DNA of 64,000 nt from a virus. Every line of letters starts with the position of its first letter. Position 1 is the first letter of the stretch. Made by a program: the position numbers and the translations under genes. The stretch covers positions 1 through 64,000 of the IMG/VR virus record IMGVR_UViG_3300043446_004967; one strand, given 5' to 3'. A model generated the notes under the pieces. It was not told where the DNA came from. It searched no databases and was given only the letters and a program-made list of their open reading frames with translations. Below are positions 34,448-41,536 of the stretch, piece after piece.

Positions 34448-34543
34448 TGCGGCGGAAGCGAAAACTCCCTTGCTCCCGCCTCGTTTTCTGTGTTACCCTG
34501 TGGTTTGAACTCAGTTCAGGGGTAGTCGCATGACTGCCGGAGG

Positions 34544-34573
34544 AAAGGCCGTCCAATGTGGGCGGCCTTTTTT
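34544..34573 (+). terminator. Rho-independent terminator
   Basis: AAAGGCCG (34544-34551) pairs with CGGCCTTT (34563-34570), and a run of six T follows, continuing TTTTTTCTTTTC. It closes the 31492-34447 plus-strand transcript. Confidence 0.88.
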
Positions 34574-34587
34574 CTTTTCCTTGTTGC

Positions 34588-35241: not shown

Positions 35242-35685
35242 ATGTTGTTTATTTTTGATCTCGACGGAACATTGGCGGACATACGGCACCGGCGGCATTA
35301 CGTCGAAAGTCCCCCGAAAAGGTGGGCGCAATTCTTTGCAGAATGTACGGAAGACACCCCTAAAAAAGACGTGATCGCCGTGTTGGAGTCGTTGAGACGC
35401 GCGGGAGCTGAAATCCGTATATGGTCCGCGCGCCCCGAAAGCACTGCGGAGGCCACGAAAGCGTGGCTGGCCCGACATATTAAAGGGGGCGACGAACTTC
35501 CTTTACGTCTCCGACAGAAAGGGGACTTCCGCCCTGACGCGGAGATCAAGCAAGAGTGGCTTAGGGAACTTACGCCGGAGGAGCGTGAAAGGCTGCGAGG
35601 GATCTTTGATGACAGAGACATTGTTGTTCAGATGTGGCGCTCGAACGGCGTCACCTGCTTTCAAGTAGATAACTACGAGAACTAG
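35242..35685 (+). CDS. HAD-superfamily phosphatase (polynucleotide kinase 3'-phosphatase-like)
   Basis: A 147-aa protein starting MLFIFDLDGTLADIRHRR. Motif I is DLDGTLAD with nucleophile Asp6 and acid/base Asp8; motif II is IWSARP; the acidic motif near the C-terminus is FDDRDIVVQMW. The 'DDR..VV..WR..G..C.QV' ending is that of the phosphatase half of T4-type polynucleotide kinase and related phage nucleotidases. It precedes the Prs-like gene by 13 bp. It may remove 3' or sugar phosphates; a role in the NAD-related pathway is inferred only from position. Confidence 0.78.
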   Translation: MLFIFDLDGTLADIRHRRHYVESPPKRWAQFFAECTEDTPKKDVIAVLESLRRAGAEIRIWSARPESTAEATKAWLARHIKGGDELPLRLRQKGDFRPDAEIKQEWLRELTPEERERLRGIFDDRDIVVQMWRSNGVTCFQVDNYEN

Positions 35686-35698
35686 ATAAGGAGGCCCC

Positions 35699-36511
35699 AT
35701 GCCGGTATATTTAAACGGCACGTTAATTGAAAAGCGGTATTATCCGTGCGGGGAGATCTCAGTGAGACTGGACGACCCCGCCCTTGCCTCACAGGGGAAT
35801 ACCCTGCGGGTCGACTATAAGGACTCTGATGACATCATTCAGATGCTGCTAGTCGCGGACGCAGTACGTAGAGTAGCCCCCGACAGGGCACTCTCTCTTG
35901 TCCTTCCGTACATCCCTTACGGCAGGCAGGATAGAGTCTGCCACCCTGGGGAACCTTTTTCGCTTAAAGTTTTGGCGGATATTATTAACGTCCAGAACTT
36001 TACCGCAGTGTACACGGTAGAACCGCATTCTGTGGCGTCGGCTAACTACATTCACCGCCTTTGCTCAGTAAGCGCGGCGACGTTAATCACCTACGAGGAT
36101 GGGAAAGGCGTGCGCGACCTGATACGGGAGGAAACCCCCGTGCTGCTCTCTCCCGATAAAGGCGGGAGGCAGCGGGTACTTGAGGTGGCGACCGCACTGG
36201 CCCAACACAATATCGTCTGTGCCGCCGCATACGCCGACAAGCGTAGGGAGGACGGGCAGGTAACGTTTACCCACGTGCCGGAAATTTGCGCCGGGAGAAA
36301 TATCTTGGTCATAGACGACATTTGCGACGGCGGGGCAACGTTCCTAAAGTTGGCGGACGCCTTACAAGAGCGCGGAGCGAGGGATCTTTACTTGTATGTG
36401 ACTCACGGATTTTTTACAAAAGGAACCGAGGAGTTACTTAAAAAATACAAAAAGATCTTTTATTACAAAGACTACCAACACATTGCCATATTGGAGCAAA
36501 AAAATGCGTAA
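35699..36511 (+). CDS. Ribose-phosphate pyrophosphokinase-like protein (Prs or ADPR-pyrophosphate synthetase)
   Basis: A 270-aa protein starting MPVYLNGTLIEKRYYP, shorter than bacterial Prs (about 310 aa). Conserved parts: VLPYIPYGRQDRV (68-80), a catalytic-type His in VEPHS (His110), KRRED (181-185) and the PRPP loop VIDDICDGGATF (204-215). In cellular Prs the loop reads DD.IDTGGT, so Cys/Gly replace Ile/Asp-Thr here. The gene overlaps the NAMPT-like start (ATGCGTAA). In phages with NAD-rebuilding pathways, genes annotated as prs can instead pyrophosphorylate ADP-ribose (NARP1 type). Sequence alone does not tell which reaction occurs. Confidence 0.85.
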   Translation: MPVYLNGTLIEKRYYPCGEISVRLDDPALASQGNTLRVDYKDSDDIIQMLLVADAVRRVAPDRALSLVLPYIPYGRQDRVCHPGEPFSLKVLADIINVQNFTAVYTVEPHSVASANYIHRLCSVSAATLITYEDGKGVRDLIREETPVLLSPDKGGRQRVLEVATALAQHNIVCAAAYADKRREDGQVTFTHVPEICAGRNILVIDDICDGGATFLKLADALQERGARDLYLYVTHGFFTKGTEELLKKYKKIFYYKDYQHIAILEQKNA

Positions 36512-38039
36512 CCCTATGTTTATTACCGACTTTTATAAGATCTCCCACCGAAACATGTACCCGCAAGGTACAGAGGAAGTGTACTCGAACTTGACCCCAA
36601 GGAGCGGTAAGCTCGCTAAGGGCGTTGCAGGCGGTCTGCCGTTCACCGACGGAGTATTTGTCTTCGGGACAGAAAACTTTATACGGGACTACCTTTTAGG
36701 AGAATGGGAGACGGGTTTTTTCCGGCGGCCTTTAGAGGAGGTTTTGGAGGAGTACGTCAGTCTGCTATCTGACACACTCAACGGACCTGTGGAGAGTTCG
36801 CACGTTGCGGAATTGCACGGCCTCGGCTATCTGCCGTTAGAAATTAAAGCGCTCCCCGAGGGCGCGTTCGTGCCGGTACAAGTTCCGATGGTGACGGTAC
36901 GCAACACGTTGCCAAAATTCTACTGGCTGACGAACTACATAGAAACGGCCATGTCCGTTTACTTGTGGAAACCTTCCACAATTGCCACCATCGCCGCAAA
37001 TTACCGCGCGGTTTTGCTCATGTACGGGGAACGCACGACCGCCGACACAAGCTACGTGGACTACCAAGCCCACGATTTTTCATTTCGGGGACTGACGTCT
37101 CTGCGCGACGCGGAGCTGACCGGCGCGGGGCACCTCACAGCGTTTAAGGGGTCTGACTGCGTACCCGCGTTCCAGTTCCTGCACCGGCTCTATGCCGCCC
37201 CCTACGGTGAACTGGGGGGTTCAGTTCCCGCCAGTGAGCACTCCGTTATGTGCGCGGGGGAAGAAGAAGGAGAGTTTGAAACCATCCGCCGGTTGGTTAC
37301 GGAAGTGCATCCGACAGGGACCGTCTCCATTGTCGCGGATACGTGGAATCTGTGGCGTGTGCTTACGGACTATTTGCCGCGTCTGAAAGACGTAATCTTA
37401 GCCAGAGAAGGTAAAGTAGTCATTCGTCCCGACAGCGGAGATCCTGTAAAAATCGTAACGGGAGACCCCGAGGCCGGAGGTGACGGGCCTTACGCGGACG
37501 CGGAGCGTAAAGGAGTGGTACGCGCTCTGTACGATATCTTCGGGGGAACCGTAAACCCGAAAGGCTACAAAGAGCTGGACCCGCATATCGGGGCCATTTA
37601 TGGCGATTCCATCACCGTTTCCCGGGCGCAGGAGATACTGAGCCGTTTAGAAAAAAACGGCTTTGCCGCAAACAATATATATTTTGGGGTCGGGTCGTAC
37701 TCTTACGGGCACATGACCCGAGACACGTTCGGTTTTGCGGTAAAAGCGACCTCCGTTACGATCAACGGAGAGCGGCGTGCCATCCAGAAAGATCCTGTCA
37801 CGGGGGACCGCGAAAAAAAATCCGCTCGGGGTTATCTTGTCGTGGCGTATGACACTCTCGCAGGAAGGTACGTGTTGAGTGACGGCAGACCGTCCCCGGA
37901 AGGCGGGTTTCTGGAGACCATTTTCCTCAACGGGAAGCGCGTCGGGCCCGAGGCCACGTCATCTACGTTCGCCACGATCAGAGCGCGGGTACAGGGTAAG
38001 GCGGCGGAATGGGCAACCCGGTATACGCAGGGGATGTAA
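36504..38039 (+). CDS. nadV: Nicotinamide phosphoribosyltransferase-like (NadV/NAMPT family)
   Basis: A 511-aa protein from ATG 36504 (MRNPMFITDFYKISHRNMY). Family signatures are present: FYKISHRNMYPQGTE, HDFSFRGLTSLRDAE, KGSDCVPA, VIRPDSGDPVKIV and GDSITVSRAQEIL...NIYFGVGSYSY. Known members join nicotinamide with PRPP to give NMN, or, in the NARP1 pathway, with ADPR-pyrophosphate to give NAD+ directly. The start overlaps the Prs-like gene, and the macro-domain gene follows one base after its stop, so the three are translated as a unit. No NMN adenylyltransferase is visible in the window, which favours a route that does not need one. Confidence 0.9.
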   Translation: MRNPMFITDFYKISHRNMYPQGTEEVYSNLTPRSGKLAKGVAGGLPFTDGVFVFGTENFIRDYLLGEWETGFFRRPLEEVLEEYVSLLSDTLNGPVESSHVAELHGLGYLPLEIKALPEGAFVPVQVPMVTVRNTLPKFYWLTNYIETAMSVYLWKPSTIATIAANYRAVLLMYGERTTADTSYVDYQAHDFSFRGLTSLRDAELTGAGHLTAFKGSDCVPAFQFLHRLYAAPYGELGGSVPASEHSVMCAGEEEGEFETIRRLVTEVHPTGTVSIVADTWNLWRVLTDYLPRLKDVILAREGKVVIRPDSGDPVKIVTGDPEAGGDGPYADAERKGVVRALYDIFGGTVNPKGYKELDPHIGAIYGDSITVSRAQEILSRLEKNGFAANNIYFGVGSYSYGHMTRDTFGFAVKATSVTINGERRAIQKDPVTGDREKKSARGYLVVAYDTLAGRYVLSDGRPSPEGGFLETIFLNGKRVGPEATSSTFATIRARVQGKAAEWATRYTQGM

Positions 38040-38040
38040 A

Positions 38041-38523
38041 ATGGAATACCTGTATCAAGATATTACTCAAGTTAAGGGACCGTGCGCTATCGCGCACGGC
38101 GTTAACTGCTTAGGGAATATGAACTCCGGCGTAGCACGCGCTCTTTTTGAGCGATGGCCGGAAGTCAAAACGGAATATTTAAAAGTTCACCGGGAAGAAG
38201 GCTGGACGTTGGGGAAAGTACGCCCCGTTAACGTCGGGGACGGGATAACCGTACTCAACTGCGCGACGCAGTTACGCCATAGGCAAGCGGGAGACCCGCC
38301 AAATTACGTGTACGCCGATTGGCGGGCAATCCGTAGCTGTTTAACGGAGGCCGCAAGTTTTTGCAAAAACCAAAGCATTGACACGCTGTATGCCCCGAAG
38401 ATAGGGTGCGGTCTTGGCGGACTCGACTGGCGCAACGTCGAACCCGTTTTTAACCAAGTAGCCGGACGGGCAAAATTGCGTATGGTCGTTTGCCTTACAG
38501 ACACAGGAAGCTCCTCTCGCTAA
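38041..38523 (+). CDS. Macro domain protein (ADP-ribose binding/processing)
   Basis: A 160-aa protein from ATG 38041 (MEYLYQDITQVKGPCAIAHG). It has the two ADP-ribose-binding loops: HGVNCLGNMNSGVARAL (about 19-35, with Asn22) and PKIGCGLGGLDW (119-130), as in Appr-1''-phosphatase and TARG1-type macro domains. It starts one base after the nadV stop. Possible activities are hydrolysis of ADPR-1''-phosphate or ADP-ribosyl esters, de-ADP-ribosylation, or binding of ADPR-type signals. Linkage to the Prs-like and NAMPT-like pair suggests that it feeds or protects that pathway. Confidence 0.88.
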   Translation: MEYLYQDITQVKGPCAIAHGVNCLGNMNSGVARALFERWPEVKTEYLKVHREEGWTLGKVRPVNVGDGITVLNCATQLRHRQAGDPPNYVYADWRAIRSCLTEAASFCKNQSIDTLYAPKIGCGLGGLDWRNVEPVFNQVAGRAKLRMVVCLTDTGSSSR

Positions 38524-39168: not shown

Positions 39169-39939
39169 ATGAAACTTATCTTAGAGAACATCGGGCCTGT
39201 AAAAAAGGCCGAAATACACCTAAAGGATCTCACGGTCGTGGTGAGCGAAAACCCTTTATGCTCTGCGTTACTGCCTAAGGTCATTGACGCAGTGGCCCGT
39301 ATGGTAGGGCGCACCCCCACGGACTTCTGGGGAGACTCGTTAAAAGAGGTGCTAAAGGGCCTACAAAAAGAATTTTTGTGGGCCACCAAACCGTGGGAAG
39401 ACGGGAGCAGAGAGGGGAGGATAAGGGTTCATAGCGAAGGAAGTCTTGTGCTGGAACTTTCGGTGACTTGTACGACAGTCCTAAACGTAAGGCCGCCGGC
39501 AGAAACAACGGTAGACGACATTCAGGTGGGGGTGCGAGTTGAGGAGGCTATCACACACTCAACGCTTTCTTGTTCTTGTGGTGTCGCACACCCTTACAAC
39601 TTCTTACACTGGGCCAACCACCGTTATCCGGGCAGCCGAATGACGGTCGCAGGCGCTTTAATAGAGAGCGGAGTCCATCCTGTAGACCAACTTGCGCTAG
39701 CTAAGAATGTAGTGGAAACGGCGAGAAACTTTGTATTCGTGTGTGTTACTTCCCACAGCCCCTACATGGTGGAAGCTTTAAAAAGGTATTCCGACCGCGA
39801 AGGAGTGTCCGCTCGTTTCGGGCTGGTGGGGGAAGACGGAATCCTCCGATACGATTGTTTGAGCGACATTTTTGCCGGGTTCGCTCAACCTTTCGATGAA
39901 TTTAGGCGGATGGACGCGGAAGATATGCGTGATGAGTAG
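39169..39939 (+). CDS. Degenerate AAA/ABC-type ATPase (pseudo-ATPase)
   Basis: A 256-aa protein starting MKLILENIGPVKKAEIHLKD. The opening matches the 'I.NFGPIK.A.I.LK.LTV..G.N.SGKS' start of AAA_15/OLD-like ATPases, but where Walker A should stand there is VVSENPLCSALL, with no GKS. In the C-terminal half, ALIESGVHPVDQLALAKNVV occupies the place of 'DEPE..LHP..Q..LA', with the Walker B acids lost, while CVTSHSPYMVEAL retains the H-loop 'THSPY' pattern. The protein is short for the family. Loss of both Walker motifs argues against ATP hydrolysis; a decoy or inhibitor of a related host ATPase is one idea. Confidence 0.68.
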   Translation: MKLILENIGPVKKAEIHLKDLTVVVSENPLCSALLPKVIDAVARMVGRTPTDFWGDSLKEVLKGLQKEFLWATKPWEDGSREGRIRVHSEGSLVLELSVTCTTVLNVRPPAETTVDDIQVGVRVEEAITHSTLSCSCGVAHPYNFLHWANHRYPGSRMTVAGALIESGVHPVDQLALAKNVVETARNFVFVCVTSHSPYMVEALKRYSDREGVSARFGLVGEDGILRYDCLSDIFAGFAQPFDEFRRMDAEDMRDE

Positions 39940-41389: not shown

Positions 41390-41480
41390 CGGGGACGGTA
41401 GGATTTGAACCTTCGACGCGGCTGCAACGCCGCGTAACGGTTTAGCAACCCGCCGCCTTAAGCCGCTCGGCCAATTCTCC
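41390..41480 (-). tRNA. tRNA-Ser(GCU)-like gene with mismatched stems
   Basis: On the minus strand the sequence has a class II tRNA layout: D-arm GCC/GGC, anticodon loop TTGCTAA (anticodon GCU, serine), a 7-bp variable arm (ACGCGGC with GCCGCGT) and T-loop TTCAAAT. The anticodon stem has a G31-A39 mismatch. The acceptor strands (GGAGAAT and CGTCCCC) form only about four of seven pairs, and no CCA is encoded. It may be a decaying or altered tRNA. It would read AGC/AGU codons. Confidence 0.7.
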
Positions 41481-41536
41481 CTCTGATAATCCCGCCCTTT
41501 TTTAAGGGGCGGGACCGATCTACCGGATCGAGGGTA

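What the first reader, a model, noticed from the sequence alone, without database searches (positions are those of the whole stretch)
35242..38523. NAD-rebuilding cluster with a translationally linked macro domain
A HAD phosphatase, a Prs-like gene, a NAMPT-like gene and a macro domain follow one another with overlaps or 1-13 bp gaps. Phage NARP1-type pathways use genes annotated as prs and nampt to turn ADP-ribose plus nicotinamide back into NAD+, defeating NADase immunity. No NMN adenylyltransferase is visible, which fits such a direct route. A macro domain fused in operon is, to my knowledge, not a standard part. It could regenerate ADP-ribose from ADPR-1''-phosphate or ADP-ribosyl adducts, or sequester an ADPR-type signal such as those used by Thoeris. 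The HAD enzyme could act on a phosphorylated intermediate.
Basis: partly seen in the sequence, partly recalled or inferred. Interest (0 to 1): 0.85.

Follow-up and report, generated by a model that had tools for sequence, protein, structure and literature searches.

The report
Phage NAD-rebuilding pair with ADP-ribose eraser
A bacterial virus carries a two-enzyme pathway of a known type (NARP1) that rebuilds NAD+ after the host destroys it, placed between a nucleic-acid phosphatase gene and a macro-domain gene that probably cuts ADP-ribose off modified molecules and so could supply the pathway with raw material.

Summary
The gene order is real: HAD phosphatase (35242-35685), Prs-like (35699-36511), NAMPT-like (36504-38039), macro (38041-38523), with a 13-bp gap, an 8-bp overlap and a 1-bp gap. 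The middle pair is NARP1 by every sequence test I could run. The NAMPT-like enzyme keeps 16 of 20 NAD-contact residues of crystallised SPbetaL1 Namat, its four changes all recur in other Prs-linked Namats, and it groups with Prs-adjacent enzymes, away from NARP2. No NMN adenylyltransferase was found in the 110.9-kb record.

The macro domain is intact and ALC1/DarG/TARG1-like. It has Gln77 where DarG/TARG1 carry the catalytic Lys, as in the thymidine-ADP-ribose eraser SCO6735, and SCO6735's long basic mobile loop, which most phage macros lack. Macro genes beside NARP1 recur in unrelated phages, and a paper on phage Adele already proposed that one feeds ADP-ribose to NARP1. So this is not a new kind of system.

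The closest relative has HAD and macro 11 bp apart with no NARP1 pair between them. HAD+macro is therefore a separate pair, and the HAD enzyme is a common PNKP-type end phosphatase, not a pathway step. Feeding of ADP-ribose to NARP1 is plausible but unshown.

The parts
35242..35685 (+). Stand-alone HAD phosphatase, PNKP/PseT 3'-phosphatase type (147 aa)
   Evidence: Pfam PF25109 E 6.5e-26; phrog_415 polynucleotide kinase E 8e-42; PDB T4 Pnkp phosphatase 5uj0 E 1.4e-7; DxDGT motif and distal DDR present; relatives in 2302 phage records; 71% identical in relative L131
35699..36511 (+). Adps-like (ADP-ribose pyrophosphate synthetase; annotated elsewhere as prs), first NARP1 enzyme
   Evidence: phrog_619 214 bits, TIGR01251 130 bits; phage-type motif DDICDGGATF instead of Prs DDMIDTGGT
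36504..38039 (+). Namat-like (nicotinamide ADP-ribose transferase; annotated elsewhere as nampt), second NARP1 enzyme; overlaps adps by 8 bp
   Evidence: 485 bits to SPbetaL1 Namat (PDB 9w5x) against 215 bits to the best human-type NAMPT entry; 16/20 NAD-contact sites identical; motif GSYSYGHMTRD; tree
38041..38523 (+). Macro domain, ALC1/TARG1/DarG-like, SCO6735-type active site (H19, N22, Q77) with a long basic mobile loop (Q77-Y91); starts 1 bp after the namat stop
   Evidence: Pfam PF01661; model pLDDT 93; Foldseek 2fg1, TARG1, SCO6735 5e3b, DarG; Q77 and N22 invariant in 28/28 rows; loop 14 residues against 10 in most phage macros

Best explanation
The locus is a NARP1 anti-defence pair placed between a polynucleotide end phosphatase and an ADP-ribosyl-hydrolase macro domain. 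When host NADase or ADP-ribosylation defences cleave NAD+, Adps phosphorylates ADP-ribose to ADPR-PP and Namat joins it to nicotinamide, remaking NAD+ in two steps (inferred from residues and homology; shown experimentally only for relatives). The macro domain hydrolyses ADP-ribose from a conjugate, most likely nucleic-acid-linked (DarT-type thymidine adduct) or another 1''-linked adduct. This protects the phage and releases ADP-ribose that Adps can use (inferred). The HAD enzyme trims 3' phosphates on nucleic-acid ends and is not a step of the NAD pathway (inferred). The HAD-macro pair also exists without NARP1 in the closest relative, so NARP1 was gained between them, or lost in that relative.
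For: Namat identity: 9w5x 485 bits against 215 bits for the best human-type NAMPT entry. 16/20 NAD-contact residues identical, and R40K, A362S, F392Y and Y396H all occur in other Prs-linked enzymes. 78 of 80 Prs-adjacent enzymes carry GS at 390-391 and 79 of 80 an F or Y at 392, against GG in NARP2-type phage enzymes. The tree puts the window within the Prs-adjacent set, split from GG-type enzymes by starred branches. No adenylyltransferase found. Macro: high-confidence fold, nearest BT1257, TARG1, SCO6735 and DarG. H19, N22 and Q77 align with SCO6735 H24, N27 and Q85; N27S and Q85A nearly or fully abolish activity in SCO6735 (PMC9411070). SCO6735-like long basic loop. Association: 6 macros within 1 kb of NAMPT in 64 non-redundant loci, against 2 in 527 kb further out (p about 9e-4). 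10 of 55 non-redundant phage macro loci have NAMPT within 2 kb and Prs in the locus. Precedents: RyDEP feeding ADPR to NARP1 (PMC13232231) and the Adele proposal. Separate pair: L131 HAD (71%) and macro (69%) 11 bp apart, no NAMPT in its record.
Against: No enzyme here has been assayed. Position 396 is His and the Gln/Asn position before it is Gly, off the strict Namat consensus. ADP-ribose specificity of Adps has no published residue signature that I could find, and its similarity to the verified SPbetaL1 Adps is only 25%. Only about 9% of NARP1 loci carry an adjacent macro, so it is optional. The relative keeps the macro without NARP1 in a 30-kb fragment, so the macro does not need NARP1. 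No DarT or other host target is known. The macro profile was seeded partly with NARP-linked macros, which may inflate the enrichment.
Confidence: 0.6

Rival explanations
1. HAD and macro form a nucleic-acid repair or de-ADP-ribosylation pair with no functional tie to NARP1; the NARP1 pair merely landed between them.
For: The close relative L131 has HAD and macro 11 bp apart and no NARP1 pair. PNKP-type phosphatases and macrodomains are both end-cleaning enzymes, and a ligase-PARG-PNKP-like operon is known in Deinococcus (PMC11833690).
Against: Macro next to NARP1 recurs in unrelated phages that lack the HAD, sometimes between adps and namat with overlapping frames (L048, L201), which suggests a functional tie. 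No RNA ligase was found in the record. HAD-macro adjacency was not seen outside this family.
Confidence: 0.25
2. The macro domain is a Poa1p-like phosphatase or esterase acting on ADPR-1''-phosphate or acetyl-ADPR and feeding NARP1, as proposed for phage Adele.
For: Published proposal for a NARP1-linked macro (PMC12846349); related Sinorhizobium phage macro annotated Poa1p_like; Foldseek also matches Poa1p 6lfr; His and Asn of the site retained.
Against: Foldseek ranks BT1257, TARG1, SCO6735 and DarG above Poa1p. Poa1p Ser30 falls opposite a variable column (Asn26; pairing from memory of the Poa1p sequence). No Tpt1-type source of ADPR-1''-phosphate was listed among the families found, although the list for the rest of the record was cut at 25 of 37.
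Confidence: 0.12
3. The macro domain binds or degrades a diffusible ADPR-type immune signal (Thoeris 2'cADPR or 3'cADPR) as a sponge.
For: Macro domains occur in some Thoeris systems and phages commonly encode signal sponges (PMC11204291 and PMC12043709, titles and abstracts).
Against: Catalytic-type residues are retained rather than lost. Nearest characterised relatives are hydrolases of conjugates. The long basic loop points to a nucleic-acid ligand.
Confidence: 0.08
4. Ordinary salvage: Prs makes PRPP, NAMPT makes NMN, and a host adenylyltransferase finishes NAD+.
For: Family names; SPbetaL1 Namat keeps some PRPP activity in vitro (PMC12774641).
Against: Namat-type residues at 390-392, tree position and score gap to human-type NAMPT; Adps-type DDICDGGATF motif; no phage adenylyltransferase found.
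Confidence: 0.06

Closest known systems
NARP1 of Bacillus phage SPbetaL1 (Adps + Namat; PDB 9W5W/9W5X)
   Same: Order adps-namat, overlapping or abutting genes, Namat 48% identical over the alignment, catalytic and NAD-contact residues
   Different: SPbetaL1 locus shows no macro or HAD gene; Adps only 25% identical; window His at Tyr396 and Lys at Arg40
NARP1-macro locus of Pakpunavirus (Adele, PaP1)
   Same: Prs-NAMPT pair with a macro gene downstream on the same strand; the same ADP-ribose-supply idea was proposed for Adele
   Different: Small ORFs lie between the genes in Pakpunavirus; PaP1 macro about 27% identical with a shorter loop; no stand-alone HAD directly upstream
NARP1-RyDEP operon of phage DyoEdafos
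   Same: Accessory enzyme inside a NARP1 operon that yields ADP-ribose for the pathway (shown in vitro there)
   Different: Accessory is a RyR-domain glycosidase acting on cADPR signals, not a macro domain
NARP2-macro locus of Rhizobium phage RHph_I1_18
   Same: Macro gene overlapping the NAMPT stop
   Different: Pathway is NMN adenylyltransferase/Nudix + NAMPT (NARP2), with no Prs
SCO6735 (Streptomyces coelicolor), ALC1-like macrodomain
   Same: Gln at the catalytic-Lys position, Asn and His of the site, long basic mobile loop
   Different: 27% identity; cellular gene, not reported as linked to NAD synthesis; biochemistry not tested for the phage protein

Membership tests
NARP1 (Adps/Namat) | Adjacent adps and namat genes | tested here: met
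   35699-36511 and 36504-38039 overlap by 8 bp
NARP1 (Adps/Namat) | Namat catalytic core and NAM/R5P contacts | tested here: met
   All NAM/R5P contact sites of SPbetaL1 Namat identical (D13, Y15, F189, S190, R192, D215, A242, R306, D308, G360, G390, S391, R399) (sites)
NARP1 (Adps/Namat) | Selectivity-clamp helix signature GSX(T/S)X(Q/N)X(N/V)TRD with aromatics at positions 3 and 7 | tested here: inconclusive
   GSYSYGHMTRD: position 3 Tyr fits; position 7 is His and the Gln/Asn position is Gly. His at 7 recurs in 6 of 80 Prs-adjacent enzymes
NARP1 (Adps/Namat) | Selectivity-clamp loop residue Arg, Lys or Tyr | tested here: met
   Lys at the Arg40 position; Lys in 27 of 80 Prs-adjacent enzymes
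NARP1 (Adps/Namat) | Phylogenetic placement with Prs-adjacent Namats, apart from NARP2 NAMPT | tested here: met
   quick tree, starred branches between GG-type NARP2 enzymes and the main Namat set; exact position of the window inside it unresolved
NARP1 (Adps/Namat) | No NMN adenylyltransferase needed | tested here: met
   No PF01467 match in the record, controls positive; the record may be incomplete
NARP1 (Adps/Namat) | ADPR + ATP + NAM converted to NAD+ | not testable with these tools
   Needs purified proteins
NARP2 (NadV/NadM) | NAMPT plus NMN adenylyltransferase | tested here: not met
SCO6735-like ALC1 macrodomain | Gln in place of catalytic Lys, conserved Asn, His | tested here: met
   Q77, N22, H19 by the alignment to 5e3b (chain numbering offset 20)
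SCO6735-like ALC1 macrodomain | Mobile loop about five residues longer than in TARG1/DarG, with basic residues | tested here: met
   Q77-Y91 is 14 residues with R79, H80, R81; SCO6735 14, BT1257 15, most phage macros 10
SCO6735-like ALC1 macrodomain | Thymidine-ADPr hydrolysis | not testable with these tools
   Needs assay
TARG1 | Lys84/Asp125 dyad | tested here: not met
   Gln77 lies opposite the DarG-type Lys in the alignment to 5m3i, and Gly126 lies in the position I assign to Asp125 (TARG1 pairing partly from memory)
PNKP 3'-phosphatase (HAD) | HAD_PNKP fold with DxDGT motif | tested here: met
   no kinase domain fused

The most novel reading that the evidence does not exclude
A phage module that erases host-made ADP-ribosylation of nucleic acid (DarT-type) with a SCO6735-like macro domain and recycles the released ADP-ribose into NAD+ through translationally coupled Adps and Namat, turning the attack itself into cofactor.
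Probability: 0.25. Interest if true: 0.7.

Novelty: new member of a known kind. Interest (0 to 1): 0.42.

Why it matters
If the macro domain feeds NARP1, one phage operon both removes the ADP-ribose damage and refills the NAD+ pool, linking defences by ADP-ribosylation with defences by NAD+ depletion. The residues named here (Q77, N22, the basic loop) make that testable. The relative that carries HAD-macro without NARP1 gives a natural comparison for asking whether the macro works alone.

Tried and rejected
Four-gene NAD module including HAD: rejected, because HAD_PNKP relatives occur in 2302 phage records, HAD-NARP1 linkage is nearly confined to this phage, and the relative L131 keeps HAD-macro without NARP1.

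NARP2 reading: rejected on residues, tree and missing adenylyltransferase.

TARG1 or DarG-type catalysis for the macro: rejected, as the Lys position is Gln. Poa1p-type kept only as a weaker rival.

RNA-repair cassette with ligase: no RNA_ligase match in the record. Pfam tallies of the other ORFs listed no Tpt1, RtcB or TIR; one search shows only 25 of 37 families.

Bacterial NARP1 near this one: the single genome scan with the window protein returned only distant Helicobacter NAMPTs with a different motif (GSYAYNSGIRD) and no Prs in the fetched locus for the three representatives kept after dereplication.

The original NARP discovery paper (Osterman et al. 2024) was not read; it appears here only through citing papers.
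Full report
Observation. The junctions are a 13-bp gap, an 8-bp overlap (ATGCGTAA) and a 1-bp gap. Pfam, PHROGs and NCBIfam agree on the family of each. The window lies in an IMG/VR viral record of 110,897 bp that also carries portal, head and tail genes, DNA polymerase A and ribonucleotide reductase. A second record, L002, is 100% identical at the NAMPT-like gene and encodes the same flanking proteins. A 17-pair terminator-like hairpin lies upstream at 34539-34575, although such sites are not more frequent here than in shuffles.

The middle pair is NARP1. The NAMPT-like protein scores 485 bits against crystallised SPbetaL1 Namat and 215 bits against the best human-type NAMPT entry. I read the NAD-contact residues from the structure paper (PMC12774641) and mapped them on my alignment. 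Sixteen of 20 are identical, and the other four (R40K, A362S, F392Y, Y396H) all occur in other Prs-linked phage enzymes. In a set of 90 enzymes dereplicated at 70%, 78 of 80 Prs-adjacent ones have GS at 390-391 and 79 of 80 have F or Y at 392, while NARP2-type phage enzymes have GG followed by Q, A or G. The published Namat consensus is met at position 3 but not strictly at position 7 (His instead of Tyr/Phe) or at the Gln/Asn position (Gly). In a quick maximum-likelihood tree the window falls among Prs-adjacent enzymes, separated from the NARP2 types by starred branches, with its exact place unresolved and a long branch. The Prs-like protein shows the phage-type loop DDICDGGATF (common in the phage set) where E. 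coli Prs has DDMIDTGGT. Its identity to SPbetaL1 Adps is only 25%, so its ADP-ribose specificity is inferred from company rather than residues. No adenylyltransferase domain was found in the record.

The macro domain. Its predicted structure is confident (pLDDT 93). Its nearest solved folds are BT1257, TARG1, SCO6735 and DarG, with Poa1p lower. In the HMMER alignment to SCO6735 (5e3b; chain offset of 20), window H19, N22 and Q77 fall on H24, N27 and Q85. In SCO6735, Q85A abolishes and N27S nearly abolishes activity; Q85 replaces the catalytic Lys of DarG and TARG1, and the enzyme removes DarT-made thymidine-ADP-ribose (PMC9411070). Q77 and N22 are invariant in all 28 rows of my phage macro alignment (two of those loci appear twice). 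SCO6735 and BT1257 have a longer, basic mobile loop thought to clamp ssDNA. The window and its relative L131 share that length (14 residues from Q to Y, with R79, H80, R81), whereas most phage macros have 10. So the macro should bind and cleave, and a nucleic-acid adduct is the better-supported substrate. Neither point was tested biochemically.

How often a macro accompanies NARP1. In 80 viral loci found with the Namat alignment alone (64 after dereplication at 80%), six macros lie within 1 kb of the NAMPT gene (122 kb searched) and two in the next 527 kb (binomial p about 9e-4). Starting from macros instead, 14 of 55 non-redundant loci have NAMPT within 2 kb on the same strand, ten of them with a Prs gene in the locus. 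Arrangements differ: macro after namat (window, L022, L108, L134, L136, L160, L179) or between adps and namat (L048, L069, L073, L201). In the tree the Prs-linked macro carriers need at least three separate changes on starred branches. The association is therefore recurrent but optional. Caveats: the macro profile was seeded partly with NARP-linked macros, and Pfam alone recovers fewer (7 of 50 whole records over the cut-off).

The closest relative. L131 (30 kb, IMG/VR) is syntenic: HAD 71%, macro 69%, ribonucleotide reductase 81% identical. There the HAD stop is followed 11 bp later by the macro start, with no Prs or NAMPT between, and no NAPRTase-family match anywhere in that record. HAD-macro is thus a pair that can stand without NARP1. 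Which state came first cannot be told from two genomes. HAD-macro adjacency was not found outside this family. The HAD enzyme is a PNKP-type phosphatase with relatives in 2302 phage records.

Place in what is known. NARP1 is an established anti-defence pathway. An ADP-ribose-yielding accessory inside a NARP1 operon has been shown for RyDEP (PMC13232231). A macro gene downstream of NARP1 has been noted in phage Adele with the same supply hypothesis (PMC12846349). A macro also overlaps the NAMPT stop in a NARP2 operon of Rhizobium phage RHph_I1_18. What I add is residue and tree support that this pair is NARP1, the recurrence count, the SCO6735-type active site and loop of this macro, and the relative that splits HAD-macro from NARP1.

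Verdict. This is a real NARP1 member with a macro accessory. The NARP1 assignment is strong (about 0.9), the macro as an active ADP-ribosyl hydrolase is likely (about 0.7), and direct feeding of NARP1 is plausible (about 0.5). HAD as a pathway step is unlikely.

Noticed in passing
L131:8760-8890 (+): A second, decayed macro gene: the first about 31 residues are intact (55% identical to the window macro), then the frame is broken.
   Followed up: partly
window 39169-39939 (+): ORF with N-terminal similarity to AAA/PD-T4-4_A-like ATPases and a C-terminal match near a TSHSPYMVEAL motif, but no evident Walker A; two related copies in L131 (9180-9875 and 10754-11419).
   Followed up: partly
G000:67736-68239 (-), L210:3610-4308: Short TROVE (Ro60-like) protein matching only profile positions 2-175 of 442; no RNA ligase found in the record.
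   Followed up: partly
window 41391-41481 (-): tRNA-Ser (GCT), the only tRNA found in the window, shortly downstream of the cluster region.
   Followed up: no
L013 (CAKLQF020000015.1, filed as Acinetobacter phage MD-2021a): Prs, Namat-type enzyme and an NMN adenylyltransferase/ADP-ribose pyrophosphatase in one cluster, with bacterial-looking neighbours (transporters, regulator); it may be a mis-filed host contig with both routes.
   Followed up: no
L210-L212 (G000:64001-110897) and the window: Pfam C5-cytosine methylase matches in two proteins of the rest of the record and one of the window, and two SMC/AAA_15-like ATPases outside the window.
   Followed up: no
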